Of a stretch of DNA of 64,000 bases, positions 2,263 to 64,000 are shown piece after piece. The stretch's first letter is position 1; the number at the start of each line of letters is the position of its first letter. The translations under genes and the position numbers were made by a program. Under the pieces are notes generated by a model, which was given only the letters and a program-made list of their open reading frames with translations, was not told where the DNA came from and searched no databases. This stretch comes from Pseudoleptotrichia goodfellowii (lineage in GTDB: Bacteria; Fusobacteriota; Fusobacteriia; Fusobacteriales; Leptotrichiaceae), in the NCBI RefSeq assembly GCF_007990505.1, contig NZ_AP019822.1, positions 1,116,001 to 1,180,000 of the forward strand, read 5' to 3'.

Positions 2263-2793
2263 ATGAAAAATAGATTAATATTTGTGAAAATTGATGAAAA
2301 GTATATTGAGTATTTATCAAGATATGAAAATAAGGTTGCACAAAAGAAAAATCGAATTTGGATAGGAGTTTTATTAGAGATAAATAATATAAAATATTTT
2401 GCACCTCTTTCTTCTCCTAAAGAAAAGCATATGAAAATGAATGAACAAATTGATTTTATGAAGATAGATTCGGGTAAATTAGGAGTAATTAATTTCAATA
2501 ATATGATACCGATAAGAGGTGAAAGTAATTATATAAAAGTGGTTTTTAAAAATGAAGATGAAAAGTATAAATATCTTTTACAAAATCAGTATAATTGGAT
2601 AAAAAATAATAAAACAGTAATTTTTCAGAAGGCAGAAGTACTATATACAATGATTGAGAAATTAATATTGAAAAAGAAAAGAACAAAATTCCAGAATACC
2701 CTCCTAAAAAGATGTGTAAATTTTAAAAAACTTGAAAAAATAATTGAAATCGAAGATAAAAAAATATTCACTAAAACGGATAAATTTTACTAA
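2263..2793 (+). CDS. toxN: Type III toxin, ToxN/AbiQ-family endoribonuclease
   Basis: The 176-residue protein matches the ToxN/AbiQ pattern. It has an N-terminal 'IDEKYIEYLSRYENKV', a strand 'GVLLEINNIKYFAPLSSPK', and then 'GKLGVINFNNMIPI'. The S50-S51-P52-K53 segment lies where ToxN has its active-site Thr-Ser-x-Lys. In characterised members the toxin cuts RNA in A-rich sites, including its own repeat precursor, and is held inactive in a toxin-RNA assembly; some abort phage infection. Length is close to the usual 165-180. The ATG at 2263 has GGGGGAT upstream. It is co-transcribed with the repeat RNA at 2039-2203, through the hairpin at 2217. The C-terminal 50 residues are very Lys-rich, fitting RNA binding. 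Activity is inferred from family and context. Confidence 0.85.
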   Translation: MKNRLIFVKIDEKYIEYLSRYENKVAQKKNRIWIGVLLEINNIKYFAPLSSPKEKHMKMNEQIDFMKIDSGKLGVINFNNMIPIRGESNYIKVVFKNEDEKYKYLLQNQYNWIKNNKTVIFQKAEVLYTMIEKLILKKKRTKFQNTLLKRCVNFKKLEKIIEIEDKKIFTKTDKFY

Positions 2794-2830
2794 AATAAAA
2801 AAATATTATTAAAATAAAAGTCTAATCCTA

Positions 2831-2859
2831 TTGAAAAATAGAAAAAAATTTGATATTAT
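2831..2859 (+). promoter_or_regulatory. Promoter of the pyr leader and operon
   Basis: TTGAAA (2831-2836), a 17-nt spacer and TATTAT (2854-2859), preceded by TGA as an extended -10. It overlaps the first codons of a longer in-frame ORF starting at 2850, so translation must begin downstream, at 2904. Confidence 0.7.
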
Positions 2860-2903
2860 ATTTAAAATTTGAGATAAAAAAATTTGAAATAGGAGAAATT
2901 GTG

Positions 2904-3101
2904 ATGCTTGGAATTTTTACTGAAAATAATAATTTCAAAAGAATATTCAGCAAACTGAAACAGGAAAAACCCGATTTTTCATTTCATTCAGTTTCATATT
3001 TTATTTCATATAATTTATACAAAAAAAGAAAATTTGAGATTCAGATTTCGGATTTTCTCACAATAATTGATAATAGAGAGAATAAAGATATTTTATTTTA
3101 A
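2904..3101 (+). CDS. Putative pyrBI leader peptide (PyrL-like attenuator ORF)
   Basis: A 65-codon ORF with a good AGGAG site (2891-2895) and an ATG at 2904. It resembles no protein family I know and is rich in Phe, Tyr, Ser and Lys. Its position suggests a leader peptide. It lies between a promoter at 2831-2859 and pyrB at 3152, it contains a U-rich tract (about 2972-3019), and its stop codon (TAA, 3099-3101) falls in the loop of a terminator at 3077-3124. In E. coli, pyrL works this way: low UTP makes RNA polymerase pause in U-rich sequence, the ribosome catches up, and the terminator cannot form. The mechanism here is inference by analogy; the peptide itself is probably unimportant. Confidence 0.6.
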   Translation: MLGIFTENNNFKRIFSKLKQEKPDFSFHSVSYFISYNLYKKRKFEIQISDFLTIIDNRENKDILF

Positions 3102-3124
3102 ATATTTATTATTCTCTTTTTTTA
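3077..3124 (+). terminator. Attenuator terminator upstream of pyrB
   Basis: AGAGAATAA (3077-3085) pairs with TTATTCTCT (3109-3117), and ATATTT (3088-3093) pairs with AAATAT (3100-3105). A T7 tract follows. The 5' arm is coding sequence of the leader ORF, whose stop is in the apical region. Confidence 0.8.
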
Positions 3125-3151
3125 TAAATAAAAATTTTATAGGAGGCGGTA

Positions 3152-4087
3152 ATGAAACAGAAAGACATTATTTCAATGAATGACATGAGTAAAGAAGAGA
3201 TTCTGAGTATTTTGGAGATTGCAGGGAAGATAGAGAAAACGCCTGAAAAAGAAAAATTAAAATTTTTACAAGGGAAAATAGTTTCAACACTGTTTTTTGA
3301 ACCGAGTACGAGAACGAAGATGTCCTTTGAGTCGGCAGCATTGAGATTGGGGGCTGAGATACTTCATTTTCCTCCCCTTGAACAGACATCACTGAAAAAA
3401 GGAGAGTCATTTACAGACACTATAAAAATGGTAGAATCCTACTCGGATGCCATAGTAGTAAGACATCCTTTTGACGGAGCGGCAAGACTTGCGGCAAATA
3501 CTTCTAAAAAACCCGTGCTTAATGCAGGAGACGGCTCCAATCAGCACCCGAGTCAGACGTTACTTGATTTGTATACTATTCTTGAAGAAAAAGGGACGTT
3601 GAATAACATATCCGTAGCTTTTGTAGGAGATTTGAAATACGGAAGAACTGTACATTCTCTTGTAAAAGCACTGACACATTTCAATCCGAAAATTTATTTT
3701 GTATCTCCCGAAATATTGCAAATGCCTCAATATTTGCTTGATGATTTGGATAAACATAATATTAAATATGAAGTTTTGAGAGATTTCAGAGATTGTCTGG
3801 ATAAAATAGATGTATTTTACATGACGAGAATACAGCGTGAAAGATTTCCTGATATAGAAGATTATGAAAAGGTAAAGGGAGTTTATGTGATAAATAAAGA
3901 AAATATAGCGGGGAAATGTAAAGAAGATATGATAATACTGCATCCGTTGCCAAGAGTGGATGAAATATCTACGGATTTGGATGATACAAAATATGCATTA
4001 TACTTTAAACAGGCTAAAAACGGTATTCCTGTGAGACAGGCGATGTTAATGACAGTGTTGGACGAAATAAAAAATCATATAAAATAG
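3152..4087 (+). CDS. pyrB: Aspartate carbamoyltransferase catalytic subunit
   Basis: PyrB condenses carbamoyl phosphate with aspartate to N-carbamoyl-aspartate, the committed step of pyrimidine synthesis, in the cytoplasm. The 311 residues are the normal length. The carbamoyl-phosphate loop 'FFEPSTRTKMSFE' is intact, as are 'DGSNQHPSQTLLDLYTI' and the aspartate-domain 'HPLPRVDEI'. The start at 3152 follows AGGAGGCGG. pyrI comes 10 bp later, so this is the class B, PyrI-regulated dodecamer type known from enterobacteria rather than the unregulated Bacillus trimer. The promoter, leader ORF and terminator upstream suggest transcription attenuation. Confidence 0.97.
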   Translation: MKQKDIISMNDMSKEEILSILEIAGKIEKTPEKEKLKFLQGKIVSTLFFEPSTRTKMSFESAALRLGAEILHFPPLEQTSLKKGESFTDTIKMVESYSDAIVVRHPFDGAARLAANTSKKPVLNAGDGSNQHPSQTLLDLYTILEEKGTLNNISVAFVGDLKYGRTVHSLVKALTHFNPKIYFVSPEILQMPQYLLDDLDKHNIKYEVLRDFRDCLDKIDVFYMTRIQRERFPDIEDYEKVKGVYVINKENIAGKCKEDMIILHPLPRVDEISTDLDDTKYALYFKQAKNGIPVRQAMLMTVLDEIKNHIK

Positions 4088-6817: not shown

Positions 6818-7085
6818 GTCATACTAGCCGGGGAGTTAGCGGTGCCCTGTATCTACAACCCGCTTTAGTAGAGGTGATGTCGGACTTGCGGATGATTTTA
6901 GTGTCAATGCCTTAAACTGTAAAGTGTTGAGAAAATAGTCCCGTATTGTGGAGAAGCGGTGAATCGTGTCAGGTTGGGAACGAAGCAGCACTAAATCGAT
7001 TTCTTCAGGTTTACGGGGTAGCTGTTTTTGAGCTTTCTGTTTGAGAAACAGGCGGTAAAATTTTTTCAAATGTCCGATGTATGAC
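6818..7085 (+). ncRNA. ffs: Signal recognition particle RNA, large Bacillus-like form
   Basis: This is the RNA scaffold of the SRP, which with Ffh targets membrane and secreted proteins. The S-domain core is clear: GTCAGGTTGGGAACGAAGCAGC (read as GTCAGGTTGGGAAC then GAAGCAGC, around 6967-6988) matches the universal GTCAGG...GGAA..GAAGCAGC Ffh-binding loop. The 5' part 'GGGGAGTTAGCGGTGCCCTG' is the Alu-domain signature of Gram-positive large SRP RNA. The ends pair: GTCATAC (6818-6824) with GTATGAC (7079-7085). Length is about 268 nt, against 114 nt for E. coli 4.5S. It has its own promoter and a terminator at 7120-7154. GC content is well above the neighbourhood. Confidence 0.93.
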
Positions 7086-61924: not shown

Positions 61925-61953
61925 CTTTCTGTAAATAAAAAATTAAATAAGTT

Positions 61954-62018
61954 ACTTATATATTCTTTGAATAAGGCAAAGAGTTTCTACGAGCGACCGG
62001 AAATTGCTTACTATAAGT
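61954..62018 (+). promoter_or_regulatory. Purine riboswitch aptamer, guanine type
   Basis: P1 is ACTTATA (61954-61960)/TATAAGT (62012-62018). P2 is CTTTG/CAAAG, J2/3 contains AGTTTCTAC, and P3 is AGC/GCT enclosing ACCGGAAATT. The order and loops match the xpt guanine aptamer. The discriminating position in J3/1 (TAC-TAT) is C, as in guanine rather than adenine riboswitches. A perfect 10-bp terminator follows at 62031, so purine excess would stop transcription before the leader ORF and purL. Confidence 0.88.
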
Positions 62019-62030
62019 GAGAGCATAGAT

Positions 62031-62082
62031 ATCTGTTTTATTGCTTCATTTTTGGTGTGCAGTTTTAAAACAGATTTTTTAT
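62031..62082 (+). terminator. Riboswitch terminator
   Basis: ATCTGTTTTA (62031-62040) and TAAAACAGAT (62066-62075) pair over 10 bp, followed by T6. Confidence 0.88.
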
Positions 62083-62092
62083 TGGAGGAATA

Positions 62093-62227
62093 ATGAAAAA
62101 AAGTTCAGTTGTTATGTTTCAAATATTTCATTGCGGACAAATTAAATGTTTGTCTTTGTTTGATGAGTTTGGAAATTCAGCGGCTGATAGTAATAAGTAT
62201 AGATATTTTTACAATCTAAGTGTATAA
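62093..62227 (+). CDS. Putative 44-residue purL leader peptide
   Basis: A small ORF with a strong ATTGGAGG site, starting MKKSSVVMFQIFHCG and ending RYFYNLSV. I recognise no family. It lies between the riboswitch terminator and a second terminator, whose 5' arm is its last codons and whose loop contains its stop codon (TAA, 62225-62227). A ribosome finishing the ORF would prevent that hairpin, as in pyrL-type attenuation. A purine-rich stretch (about 62184-62204, GATAGTAATAAGTATAGATA) precedes the terminator and might make polymerase sensitive to purine nucleotide supply. This mechanism is inference. Confidence 0.55.
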   Translation: MKKSSVVMFQIFHCGQIKCLSLFDEFGNSAADSNKYRYFYNLSV

Positions 62228-62246
62228 ATTCGCTTAGATTTTTTAT
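62213..62246 (+). terminator. Second terminator before purL, overlapping the leader ORF end
   Basis: AATCTAAG (62213-62220) and CTTAGATT (62233-62240), loop TGTATAAATTCG, then T-run. It lies 29 nt before purL. Confidence 0.85.
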
Positions 62247-62274
62247 TTAAAATAAAATTTTAAGGAGTTGTATA

Positions 62275-64000
62275 ATGAATTATCGAATATTTGTGGAAAA
62301 AAAGAAAAATTTCAGGGTGGAAGCACAAAGTCTGTTAAATGATTTAAAAGATAATTTATCTGTTAAAAATCTTGAGAATGTCAGAATATTGAATATATAC
62401 GATATTTTCAATCTGAACAAGAAAGATCTGAAAAAGCTTGATACTTCGGTATTTTCTGAAATTAATGCCGATGATATTTATTATTATCTTGAAGATGTAT
62501 TGGAAGAGACAGGGGTAAAAAGAGAAAATGAAATATATTTTGCAACGGAATTTTTACCAGGACAATATGATCAGAGAGCGGATTCGGCAGTTCAATGTAT
62601 AAATCTCCTGTCGGACAGTGAAAATGTAGCCGTAAAAAGCGGGAAATTGATAATTTTATACGGAAAAGTTTCCGAAGAAGATATAAAAAGAATAAAGAAA
62701 TATTATATAAATGAAGTCGAAATGAAAGAAAAGGATTTGGCAATATTAATTGAAAACAGAGAAAAGGAAAACACTGAAAAAGTTCCTGTTTTTAAAAGCT
62801 TTAGAGAAAAAAGCGAAAAGGAAATGGAAGAATTTAAGAAAAATCTTGAACTTGCAATGACTGTGAAAGATTTGCTATTTATTCAGAATTATTTTAAAAA
62901 TGAAGAAAAAAGAGATCCGAGTGAAACGGAAATAAGAGTTCTCGATACTTACTGGTCGGATCATTGCAGACACACAACCTTTGAAACGATAATAGACGAT
63001 ATAAAAATAGAAAATGAAAAATATAAAGATATTATTGAAAAAACTTTGAGTGAGTATATTAAAAGCAGAGAATACGTACATGGAGAAAAAATCGATAAAA
63101 AACCTGTAACTTTAATGGATTTGGCGACTATTTTCGGGAAAGAAGCTAGAAAAAAAGGACTTCTTTCGGATTTGGAAGTTTCCGATGAAATAAATGCGTG
63201 TTCGATATATATAGACGTGCCTGTAGAGAGAATAGGTGAAAACGGTAATAAAATTGTAACTGATGAAAAATGGATATTGCAGTTTAAAAATGAAACGCAT
63301 AATCACCCTACAGAAATAGAGCCTTTTGGGGGAGCTTCCACTTGTATAGGCGGGGCAATAAGAGATCCGCTGTCAGGAAGGACTTTTGTATATCAGGCTA
63401 TGAGAATAAGCGGTTCGGGAGATCCTACCGAAAAAATAGAAAATACCATAAAAGGAAAATTGCCACAAAAAGTTATTACACAAAAGGCAGCACACGGATT
63501 TTCCTCTTACGGAAATCAAATAGGACTGACTACAACTTATGTAAACGAAATATATGATGAAGGATACAAGGCAAAGAGAATGGAGCTCGGATTGGTTGTC
63601 GGAGCCGCACCTGCCGAAAATATTATAAGAGAAAAGCCTGAAAAAGGTGATGTAGTAATACTTTTAGGAGGAAGAACGGGACGGGACGGAATAGGCGGAG
63701 CAACAGGCTCTTCCAAAGAACATACAACCGAATCTGCCGAAAAATGCGGAGCCGAAGTTCAAAAAGGAAATGCGATAATTGAAAGAAAGATACAGAGACT
63801 ATTCAGAAATAAAGATGTAACAAAATTAATAAAAAAATGTAATGATTTCGGGGCAGGAGGGGTTTCAGTAGCTATAGGAGAACTCGCCGACGGGCTGGAA
63901 ATCGACTTAAATAAAGTGAAAGTGAAGTATACAGGGCTTACAGGAACGGAACTCGCTATATCCGAATCGCAGGAAAGAATGGCAGTAGTAATAGCCAAAG
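62275..64000 (+). CDS. purL: Phosphoribosylformylglycinamidine synthase (partial, runs off the window)
   Basis: PurL converts FGAR to FGAM in purine synthesis using glutamine and ATP. The visible 575 residues are the N-terminal part of the large single-chain type (usually 1,200-1,300 residues): 'MNYRIFVEKKKNFRVEAQSL' start, linker with 'TYWSDHCRHTTF', ATP-site 'FKNETHNHPTEIEPFGGAST', 'GGRTGRDGIGGATGSSKEH' and 'NDFGAGGVSVAIGELADG'. The start follows AAGGAG. The gene continues past 64000. The riboswitch, leader ORF and two terminators upstream all point to tight control by purine supply; further pur genes probably follow. Confidence 0.95.
   Translation, partial: MNYRIFVEKKKNFRVEAQSLLNDLKDNLSVKNLENVRILNIYDIFNLNKKDLKKLDTSVFSEINADDIYYYLEDVLEETGVKRENEIYFATEFLPGQYDQRADSAVQCINLLSDSENVAVKSGKLIILYGKVSEEDIKRIKKYYINEVEMKEKDLAILIENREKENTEKVPVFKSFREKSEKEMEEFKKNLELAMTVKDLLFIQNYFKNEEKRDPSETEIRVLDTYWSDHCRHTTFETIIDDIKIENEKYKDIIEKTLSEYIKSREYVHGEKIDKKPVTLMDLATIFGKEARKKGLLSDLEVSDEINACSIYIDVPVERIGENGNKIVTDEKWILQFKNETHNHPTEIEPFGGASTCIGGAIRDPLSGRTFVYQAMRISGSGDPTEKIENTIKGKLPQKVITQKAAHGFSSYGNQIGLTTTYVNEIYDEGYKAKRMELGLVVGAAPAENIIREKPEKGDVVILLGGRTGRDGIGGATGSSKEHTTESAEKCGAEVQKGNAIIERKIQRLFRNKDVTKLIKKCNDFGAGGVSVAIGELADGLEIDLNKVKVKYTGLTGTELAISESQERMAVVIAK

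What the first reader, a model, noticed from the sequence alone, without database searches (positions are those of the whole stretch)
2831..3124. PyrL-like UTP attenuator in front of pyrBI
A promoter (2831-2859) is followed by a 65-codon ORF, a U-rich stretch and a terminator whose apical region contains the ORF stop codon, then pyrB-pyrI. E. coli pyrBI is controlled by exactly this geometry. Finding it with an unrelated leader peptide in a fusobacterium-like genome suggests independent evolution, and explains an otherwise orphan ORF.
Basis: partly seen in the sequence, partly recalled or inferred. Interest (0 to 1): 0.75.

Follow-up and report, generated by a model that had tools for sequence, protein, structure and literature searches.

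The report
Ribosome-gated pyrimidine attenuator in fusobacteria
In front of its pyrimidine-synthesis genes this fusobacterium carries a short throw-away reading frame that runs into a transcription-stop hairpin, and the same device recurs across most fusobacteria (and in Brachyspira, which took over the gene together with the switch), so the cell probably opens these genes when UTP runs low and a ribosome catches up with the stalled RNA polymerase.

Summary
In detail: promoter 2831-2859, 65-codon ORF 2904-3101, U-rich tract, terminator 3076-3123 with the ORF's TAA in its loop, then pyrB-pyrI-pyrF-pyrC.

It is no local curiosity. A comparable leader heads the pyrimidine operon in 62 of 84 pyrB-bearing Fusobacteriota genomes (18 of 24 genera). 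Where pyrB lies behind carAB, it sits before carA instead. Peptides do not align between genera; reading frame, hairpin, U-rich tract and a TGn -10 promoter persist. Shuffled leaders would give 0.3 lineages; 16 of 20 were seen. True PyrR occurs only in one genus, which lacks the leader. Brachyspira has the leader in 24 of 24, and its PyrB nests inside Fusobacteriaceae: transfer with the switch.

Best reading: pyrBI-type, UTP-sensing, ribosome-dependent attenuation without antiterminator. UTP response and TSS are untested.

Corrections: in E. coli the pyrL ORF runs through the terminator, so "exactly this geometry" is wrong; stop position varies among relatives; "independent evolution" does not follow from unrelated peptides.

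The surprise: Fusobacteria are classed as uncoupled ("runaway") transcribers, and ordinary genes here end a median 11 nt before their terminators, yet these leaders make sense only if a ribosome can reach the hairpin in time.

The parts
2831..2859 (+). promoter: -35 TTGAAA 2831-2836, 17-nt spacer, TG 2851-2852, -10 TATTAT 2854-2859
   Evidence: same layout in 20 of 21 lineages
2866..2871 (+). presumed transcription start and initially transcribed AATTTG (as at E. coli pyrBI); possible site of UTP-dependent reiterative initiation
   Evidence: inferred from -10 spacing; RTTT at +8..+11 after the -10 in 8 of 21 lineages against 0.5 expected; start site not mapped
2891..2895 (+). Shine-Dalgarno AGGAG of the leader ORF
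   Evidence: sequence
2904..3101 (+). leader ORF, 65 codons, stop TAA 3099-3101 inside the terminator loop
   Evidence: null 0.004 by shuffling; no Pfam match
2974..3018 (+). U-rich tract, presumed UTP-sensitive RNA polymerase pause region
   Evidence: T 0.48 at -80..-10 before the stem against 0.33 further up over 19 lineages, p 0.0014
3027..3058 (+). extra leader hairpin (-11.7 kcal/mol, z -2.9); possible pause hairpin; the shorter leaders of the two congeners lack this part
3076..3123 (+). intrinsic terminator: hairpin 3076-3118, T-run 3117-3123
3152..4087 (+). pyrB, aspartate carbamoyltransferase catalytic chain
   Evidence: Pfam PF02729/PF00185
4098..4553 (+). pyrI, regulatory chain
   Evidence: Pfam PF01948/PF02748
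4573..5331 (+). pyrF, OMP decarboxylase
   Evidence: Pfam PF00215
5328..6593 (+). pyrC-like dihydroorotase
   Evidence: Pfam amidohydrolase; name from context

Best explanation
It is a pyrBI-type transcription attenuator. Transcription starts near 2866, the 65-codon leader is translated, and RNA polymerase meets an intrinsic terminator at 3076-3123 before pyrB. With ample UTP, polymerase passes the U-rich tract fast, the ribosome lags, the hairpin forms and transcription ends. When UTP is short, polymerase slows in the U-rich tract, the leader ribosome catches up, and because the ORF runs into the hairpin, the ribosome covers its 5' arm as it is made; the hairpin cannot form and pyrBIFC is transcribed. 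No antiterminator RNA structure and no PyrR protein are involved. The peptide probably has no function beyond keeping the frame open and U-rich. Shown by comparison: conserved anatomy, placement at operon heads, lack of an antiterminator, lack of PyrR. Inferred: start site, translation, pausing, UTP as the signal.
For: Anatomy present at 62 of 84 pyrB-bearing Fusobacteriota genomes, 18 of 24 genera (G057, G059 and G062 judged by eye). It follows the operon head: in all 11 carAB-pyrB operons read, and 3 more of the same genus, it lies before carA; one genus carries a second one, with an unrelated peptide, before its separate carAB. Shuffle test 16 of 20 lineages against 0.29. Leader stops lie past the stem start in 57 of 65 loci against 4 of 51 ordinary gene ends, p 2.5e-19. 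U-rich tract in 17 of 19 lineages. 5' arm shows no excess pairing upstream, mean z +0.18, E. coli included. True PyrR in 3 of 98 genomes, all of genus g19, which has no such leader. E. coli pyrL is recovered by the same script; 30 Clostridiaceae pyrB loci show no comparable set-up. Stop codons close to a terminator let the ribosome suppress termination in E. coli reporters, and pausing synchronises the two at pyrBI (PMC4824070).
Against: No expression data; UTP dependence rests on analogy and on the U-rich tract. Fusobacteria are classed at phylum level as runaway transcribers (PMC13323073), which argues against routine ribosome-polymerase contact. Leptotrichia (13 of 13) lacks the leader without gaining PyrR. 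In the window itself the U-rich tract ends about 58 nt before the stem, and the 5' arm has a weak upstream partner (z -1.9). Amino-acid-level constraint within genera (N/S 0.3-0.8 of the equal-rate expectation) leaves some room for a peptide role. Loci within a genus are not independent; genus counts are the safer figures.
Confidence: 0.8

Rival explanations
1. The leader senses an amino acid (phenylalanine or other) or general translation, as in trp/phe-type attenuators: a ribosome stalled at starved codons switches the RNA between antiterminator and terminator.
For: Many leaders are rich in Phe, Ile and Tyr codons; the ORF is under some amino-acid constraint within genera.
Against: No antiterminator partner for the 5' arm (mean z +0.18). 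Phe richness follows from U richness; codons and residues differ from genus to genus. The genes are pyrimidine genes throughout, including carA heads.
Confidence: 0.06
2. Rho-dependent leader attenuation: the untranslated pyrimidine-rich leader is a Rho loading site, and translation of the ORF protects it; the hairpin is only a 3' end.
For: Genes of the window are 60% purine, while the leader's last 70 nt are 44% purine over 19 lineages; Rho in runaway species prefers pyrimidine-rich RNA (PMC13323073).
Against: A hairpin plus T-run is kept throughout, and the ORF is aimed at the hairpin rather than merely covering the U-rich part.
Confidence: 0.06
3. The ORF is an ordinary small protein gene whose terminator happens to overlap its end, and pyrB has its own promoter.
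For: One reading frame with a good Shine-Dalgarno; fusobacterial genes often end close to their terminators.
Against: Peptides do not align between genera while the place does not change; 28 nt between T-run and pyrB start leaves no room for a full promoter outside the terminator; ordinary stops lie before, not inside, the hairpin.
Confidence: 0.04
4. Control is mainly at initiation: UTP-dependent reiterative transcription at AATTTG decides pyrB expression, and the terminator is minor.
For: Window start region AATTTG; AATTT in most Brachyspira; RTTT at the same place in 8 of 21 lineages, p about 1e-8; E. coli pyrBI and carAB use this mechanism, carAB at GUUUG (PMC6245113).
Against: Thirteen lineages with the attenuator lack the U run, so it cannot be the common principle; it may be an added layer.
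Confidence: 0.04

Closest known systems
Escherichia coli pyrBI attenuator (pyrL leader)
   Same: Promoter, short translated leader, U-rich tract, intrinsic terminator, pyrB-pyrI; no antiterminator; start sequence AATTTG in the window; recovered by the same script.
   Different: E. coli ORF (44 codons) runs through the terminator and stops 6 nt before pyrB; here it stops in the hairpin loop. No evident peptide or nucleotide similarity. Hairpin long and A+T-rich. The fusobacterial device also heads carAB operons, where E. coli uses other controls (PMC6245113).
Escherichia coli pyrE attenuator (translation of rph up to the terminator; from memory, not tested)
   Same: Stop codon close to the terminator rather than past it; genus g18 places a whole arginase-like gene 8-9 nt before the terminator of pyrB.
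   Different: In the window the ORF is a short leader, not a working gene.
PyrR-dependent attenuator (Rfam RF00515, Bacillus type)
   Same: Transcription attenuation of pyr operons.
   Different: No Rfam PyrR element, no PyrR in the genome, and a leader ORF instead.
Clostridiaceae pyrB leader terminator (GCCTTCC...GGAAGGC)
   Same: Terminator shortly before pyrB.
   Different: No comparable leader ORF running into it; PyrB on a separate branch.

Membership tests
pyrBI-type (UTP/ribosome) attenuator | Short leader ORF with ribosome-binding site, starting soon after a promoter at the head of a pyr operon | tested here: met
pyrBI-type (UTP/ribosome) attenuator | Leader ORF reaches far enough that a ribosome in it overlaps the terminator hairpin | tested here: met
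   window stop in the loop; 57 of 65 fusobacterial loci past the stem start
pyrBI-type (UTP/ribosome) attenuator | Leader ORF runs right through the terminator, as in E. coli | tested here: not met
   window ORF ends in the loop; 5 of 65 fusobacterial and 18 of 24 Brachyspira loci do run past. The feature varies among orthologous leaders, so it is not treated as defining
pyrBI-type (UTP/ribosome) attenuator | U-rich tract before the terminator | tested here: met
pyrBI-type (UTP/ribosome) attenuator | No antiterminator structure | tested here: met
   over 20 lineages; window alone z -1.9, weak
pyrBI-type (UTP/ribosome) attenuator | Readthrough rises when UTP is low and needs leader translation | not testable with these tools
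   needs expression or in vitro transcription data
PyrR-regulated attenuator | PyrR protein and PyrR-binding RNA element | tested here: not met
Amino-acid leader attenuator (trp/phe type) | Alternative antiterminator hairpin and regulatory codon run | tested here: not met
   no conserved codon run

The most novel reading that the evidence does not exclude
Conditional coupling: in a phylum whose polymerases normally outrun ribosomes, UTP shortage slows polymerase inside a U-rich leader just enough to let a ribosome catch up, so that transcription-translation coupling is itself the regulatory signal. The pyrimidine operons (and perhaps the purL leader seen in the same window) would be places where coupling is switched on locally in an otherwise uncoupled cell, and the module has travelled with pyrB into Brachyspira.
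Probability: 0.35. Interest if true: 0.8.

Novelty: new member of a known kind. Interest (0 to 1): 0.6.

Why it matters
It offers a pyrimidine control for a phylum that, one genus apart, lacks PyrR, and explains dozens of orphan leader ORFs there. It sets a direct test for an open question: Fusobacteria are classed as runaway (uncoupled) transcribers, and their genes end close to their terminators, yet a ribosome-gated attenuator is kept across the phylum. Either the classification is too coarse or coupling can be switched on locally by substrate-limited polymerase. It also shows a regulatory module moving between phyla with its gene (Fusobacteriaceae to Brachyspira).

Tried and rejected
Known RNA families: Rfam gathering scan and a permissive scan of 2750-3200 gave nothing relevant. 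PyrR: absent from all but genus g19; the hits in other genomes are far below the family's cut-off, presumably other phosphoribosyltransferases. Antiterminator: none. Stop-in-loop as the conserved rule: rejected; the rule is that the ORF reaches the hairpin. Peptide conservation across genera: none seen; within genera N/S is 0.3-0.8 of an equal-rate expectation, which transition bias alone could lower, so not taken as proof of a peptide function. Conserved AATTTG start as the common principle: rejected, a U run is present in 8 of 21 lineages only. pyrE of the window genome (about 1.5 kb before the window) has no such leader. Generic promoter/terminator scan not informative here. A published F. 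nucleatum transcriptome paper (PMC11005410) does not mention pyr genes or leaders in its main text. Literature searches found no report of this in Fusobacteria; most subscription papers are not held, so absence is weak.

Full report
What is there. At 2831-2859 lies TTGAAA-17-TATTAT with an extended -10, followed by AATTTG at 2866-2871, AGGAG at 2891-2895, an ORF of 65 codons from ATG 2904 to TAA 3099-3101, a U-rich tract at about 2974-3018 and a hairpin with T-run at 3076-3123. The hairpin folds at -13.8 kcal/mol, z -4.6, and the ORF's stop codon lies in its loop. pyrB, pyrI, pyrF and pyrC follow.

Is it more than chance. Shuffling the leader while keeping the hairpin yields an ORF of at least 25 codons with a Shine-Dalgarno that ends in or beyond the hairpin in 0.4% of trials for the window. 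Over 20 lineages 0.29 successes are expected and 16 are seen under that strict rule. In 65 fusobacterial leader loci the stop lies past the stem start in 57, against 4 of 51 ordinary gene ends with compact terminators (p 2.5e-19). Loci of one genus are not independent, but 16 of 18 genera have the median past the stem start.

Relatives. PyrB was sought in 98 Fusobacteriota genomes; 84 have it. I read the 5' regions of these. A leader of this kind heads the operon in 62 of 84 genomes and 18 of 24 genera, including a genome from another family of the class (G097). Three of these (G057, G059, G062) missed the final automatic rule and were judged by eye. The exceptions are orderly. In genera g2, g9 (three of four genomes), g21, g23 and g27 pyrB lies behind carAB, and the leader is found before carA instead (11 of 11 operons read, plus three more g27 genomes). 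In g18 a full arginase-like gene ends 8-9 nt before the terminator. In g19 the only true PyrR of the phylum sits beside pyrB and there is no leader. Genera g4, g6 and g13 carry PyrB of a different branch. Leptotrichia (g3) seems simply to have lost it. In g15 a second attenuator with an unrelated peptide precedes the separate carAB operon.

What is conserved and what is not. Peptides do not align between genera. The promoter layout TTGnnn-17-TGn-TAnnnT stands 27-46 nt before the ORF in 20 of 21 lineages. T content in the 70 nt up to 10 nt before the stem is 0.48 against 0.33 further up, higher in 17 of 19 lineages. Stops fall in the loop (24), 5' arm (15), 3' arm (13), just before (8) or past (5) the hairpin in fusobacterial loci. 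So the rule that seems to be kept is that the frame reaches the hairpin, not that the stop sits in the loop.

Mechanism. The 5' arm shows no excess complementarity to the leader upstream (mean z +0.18 over 20 lineages, E. coli included), so an antiterminator of the trp or PyrR kind is unlikely. No PyrR and no Rfam element are present. What remains is occlusion of the hairpin by a ribosome translating into it, gated by how far polymerase is ahead, which the U-rich tract would make UTP-dependent. In E. coli reporters a stop codon a few nt before a terminator cuts termination from about 90% to under 10%, with full termination only beyond 27 nt (PMC4824070). Start site, translation, pausing and UTP response are inferred, not shown.

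The E. coli comparison. E. coli pyrL was fetched as a control (L096). Its ORF stops 6 nt before pyrB, beyond the terminator at -50..-30. The stage-one statement that E. coli has exactly this geometry is thus wrong in detail. The window also has AATTTG where transcription should start, as in E. coli; nearly all Brachyspira have AATTT and seven other lineages a purine followed by TTT at the same place. In E. coli such runs support UTP-dependent reiterative initiation (PMC6245113). This could be a second layer here, but most lineages lack it.

Origin. In a PyrB tree the Brachyspira sequences fall inside Fusobacteriaceae with support 100/98, and all 24 Brachyspira with this pyrB have the leader, although most of them also have PyrR elsewhere in the genome. 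The simplest account is one transfer of pyrB with its attenuator. Within Fusobacteriota the device looks ancestral to the native pyrB. Whether it shares ancestry with the proteobacterial one cannot be said: peptides diverge too fast, and the E. coli row is a long branch. 'Independent evolution' is therefore neither shown nor excluded.

The tension that makes it interesting. Fusobacteria are assigned, at phylum level, to runaway transcription in PMC13323073. The window agrees: 5 of 6 gene-end terminators start 7-13 nt after the stop codon and genes are 60% purine; over the phylum sample the median distance is 11 nt. If ribosomes never kept up, a leader that ends inside a terminator would be useless and would hardly be kept through 18 genera with changing peptides. 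The reading I favour is that polymerase outruns ribosomes by default, giving termination, and that UTP shortage in the U-rich leader restores contact. That is testable in coupled and uncoupled hosts.

Limits. All evidence is comparative. The survey uses one genome per species and simple energy rules for terminators; some leader assignments rest on one Shine-Dalgarno choice. No transcriptome of these organisms was available here, and the literature held is incomplete.

Noticed in passing
window 61936-62275: Tandem control before purL: purine riboswitch (61936-62033) with terminator, then a 44-codon leader ORF (62094-62228) whose stop lies in the loop of a second terminator (62213-62240). Relatives in g1, g8, g10, g11 and g2 have riboswitch plus leader; several Leptotrichia keep leader and terminator. 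A shared AGACAA..TTGTCTACTTTGTT / Q-x-x-x-LSTL core suggests a conserved peptide or an undescribed RNA element; not in Rfam.
   Followed up: partly
window about 2038-2793: Type III toxin-antitoxin system: ToxN-family gene 2263-2793 (PF13958, 1.2e-42) preceded by two to three direct repeats (toxI-like, by eye) and a terminator, directly upstream of the pyr leader.
   Followed up: no
genomes G000, G001, G002 (window genus), G009, G020: No carA found although pyrB is present; carbamoyl phosphate must come from another source (G001 and G020 are incomplete genomes).
   Followed up: no
Leptotrichia genomes (g3), e.g. L007, L008: Native pyrB but no leader attenuator and no PyrR; a promoter-like site lies directly before pyrB in those read. 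How pyrB is regulated there is unexplained.
   Followed up: partly
L026, L067, L069 (genus g18): An arginase-like gene ends 8-9 nt before a terminator that lies shortly before pyrB (34 nt in L026): reminiscent of the E. coli rph-pyrE arrangement.
   Followed up: partly
L098, L102-L124 (Brachyspira): pyrB with its attenuator appears to have come from Fusobacteriaceae; most of these genomes also encode PyrR elsewhere.
   Followed up: yes
window 6819-7084: Bacterial large SRP RNA just after pyrC.
   Followed up: no
window 20962, 33950, 40695, 57655, 58540: Ordinary gene-end terminators start only 7-13 nt after the stop codon, as expected for runaway transcription.
   Followed up: yes
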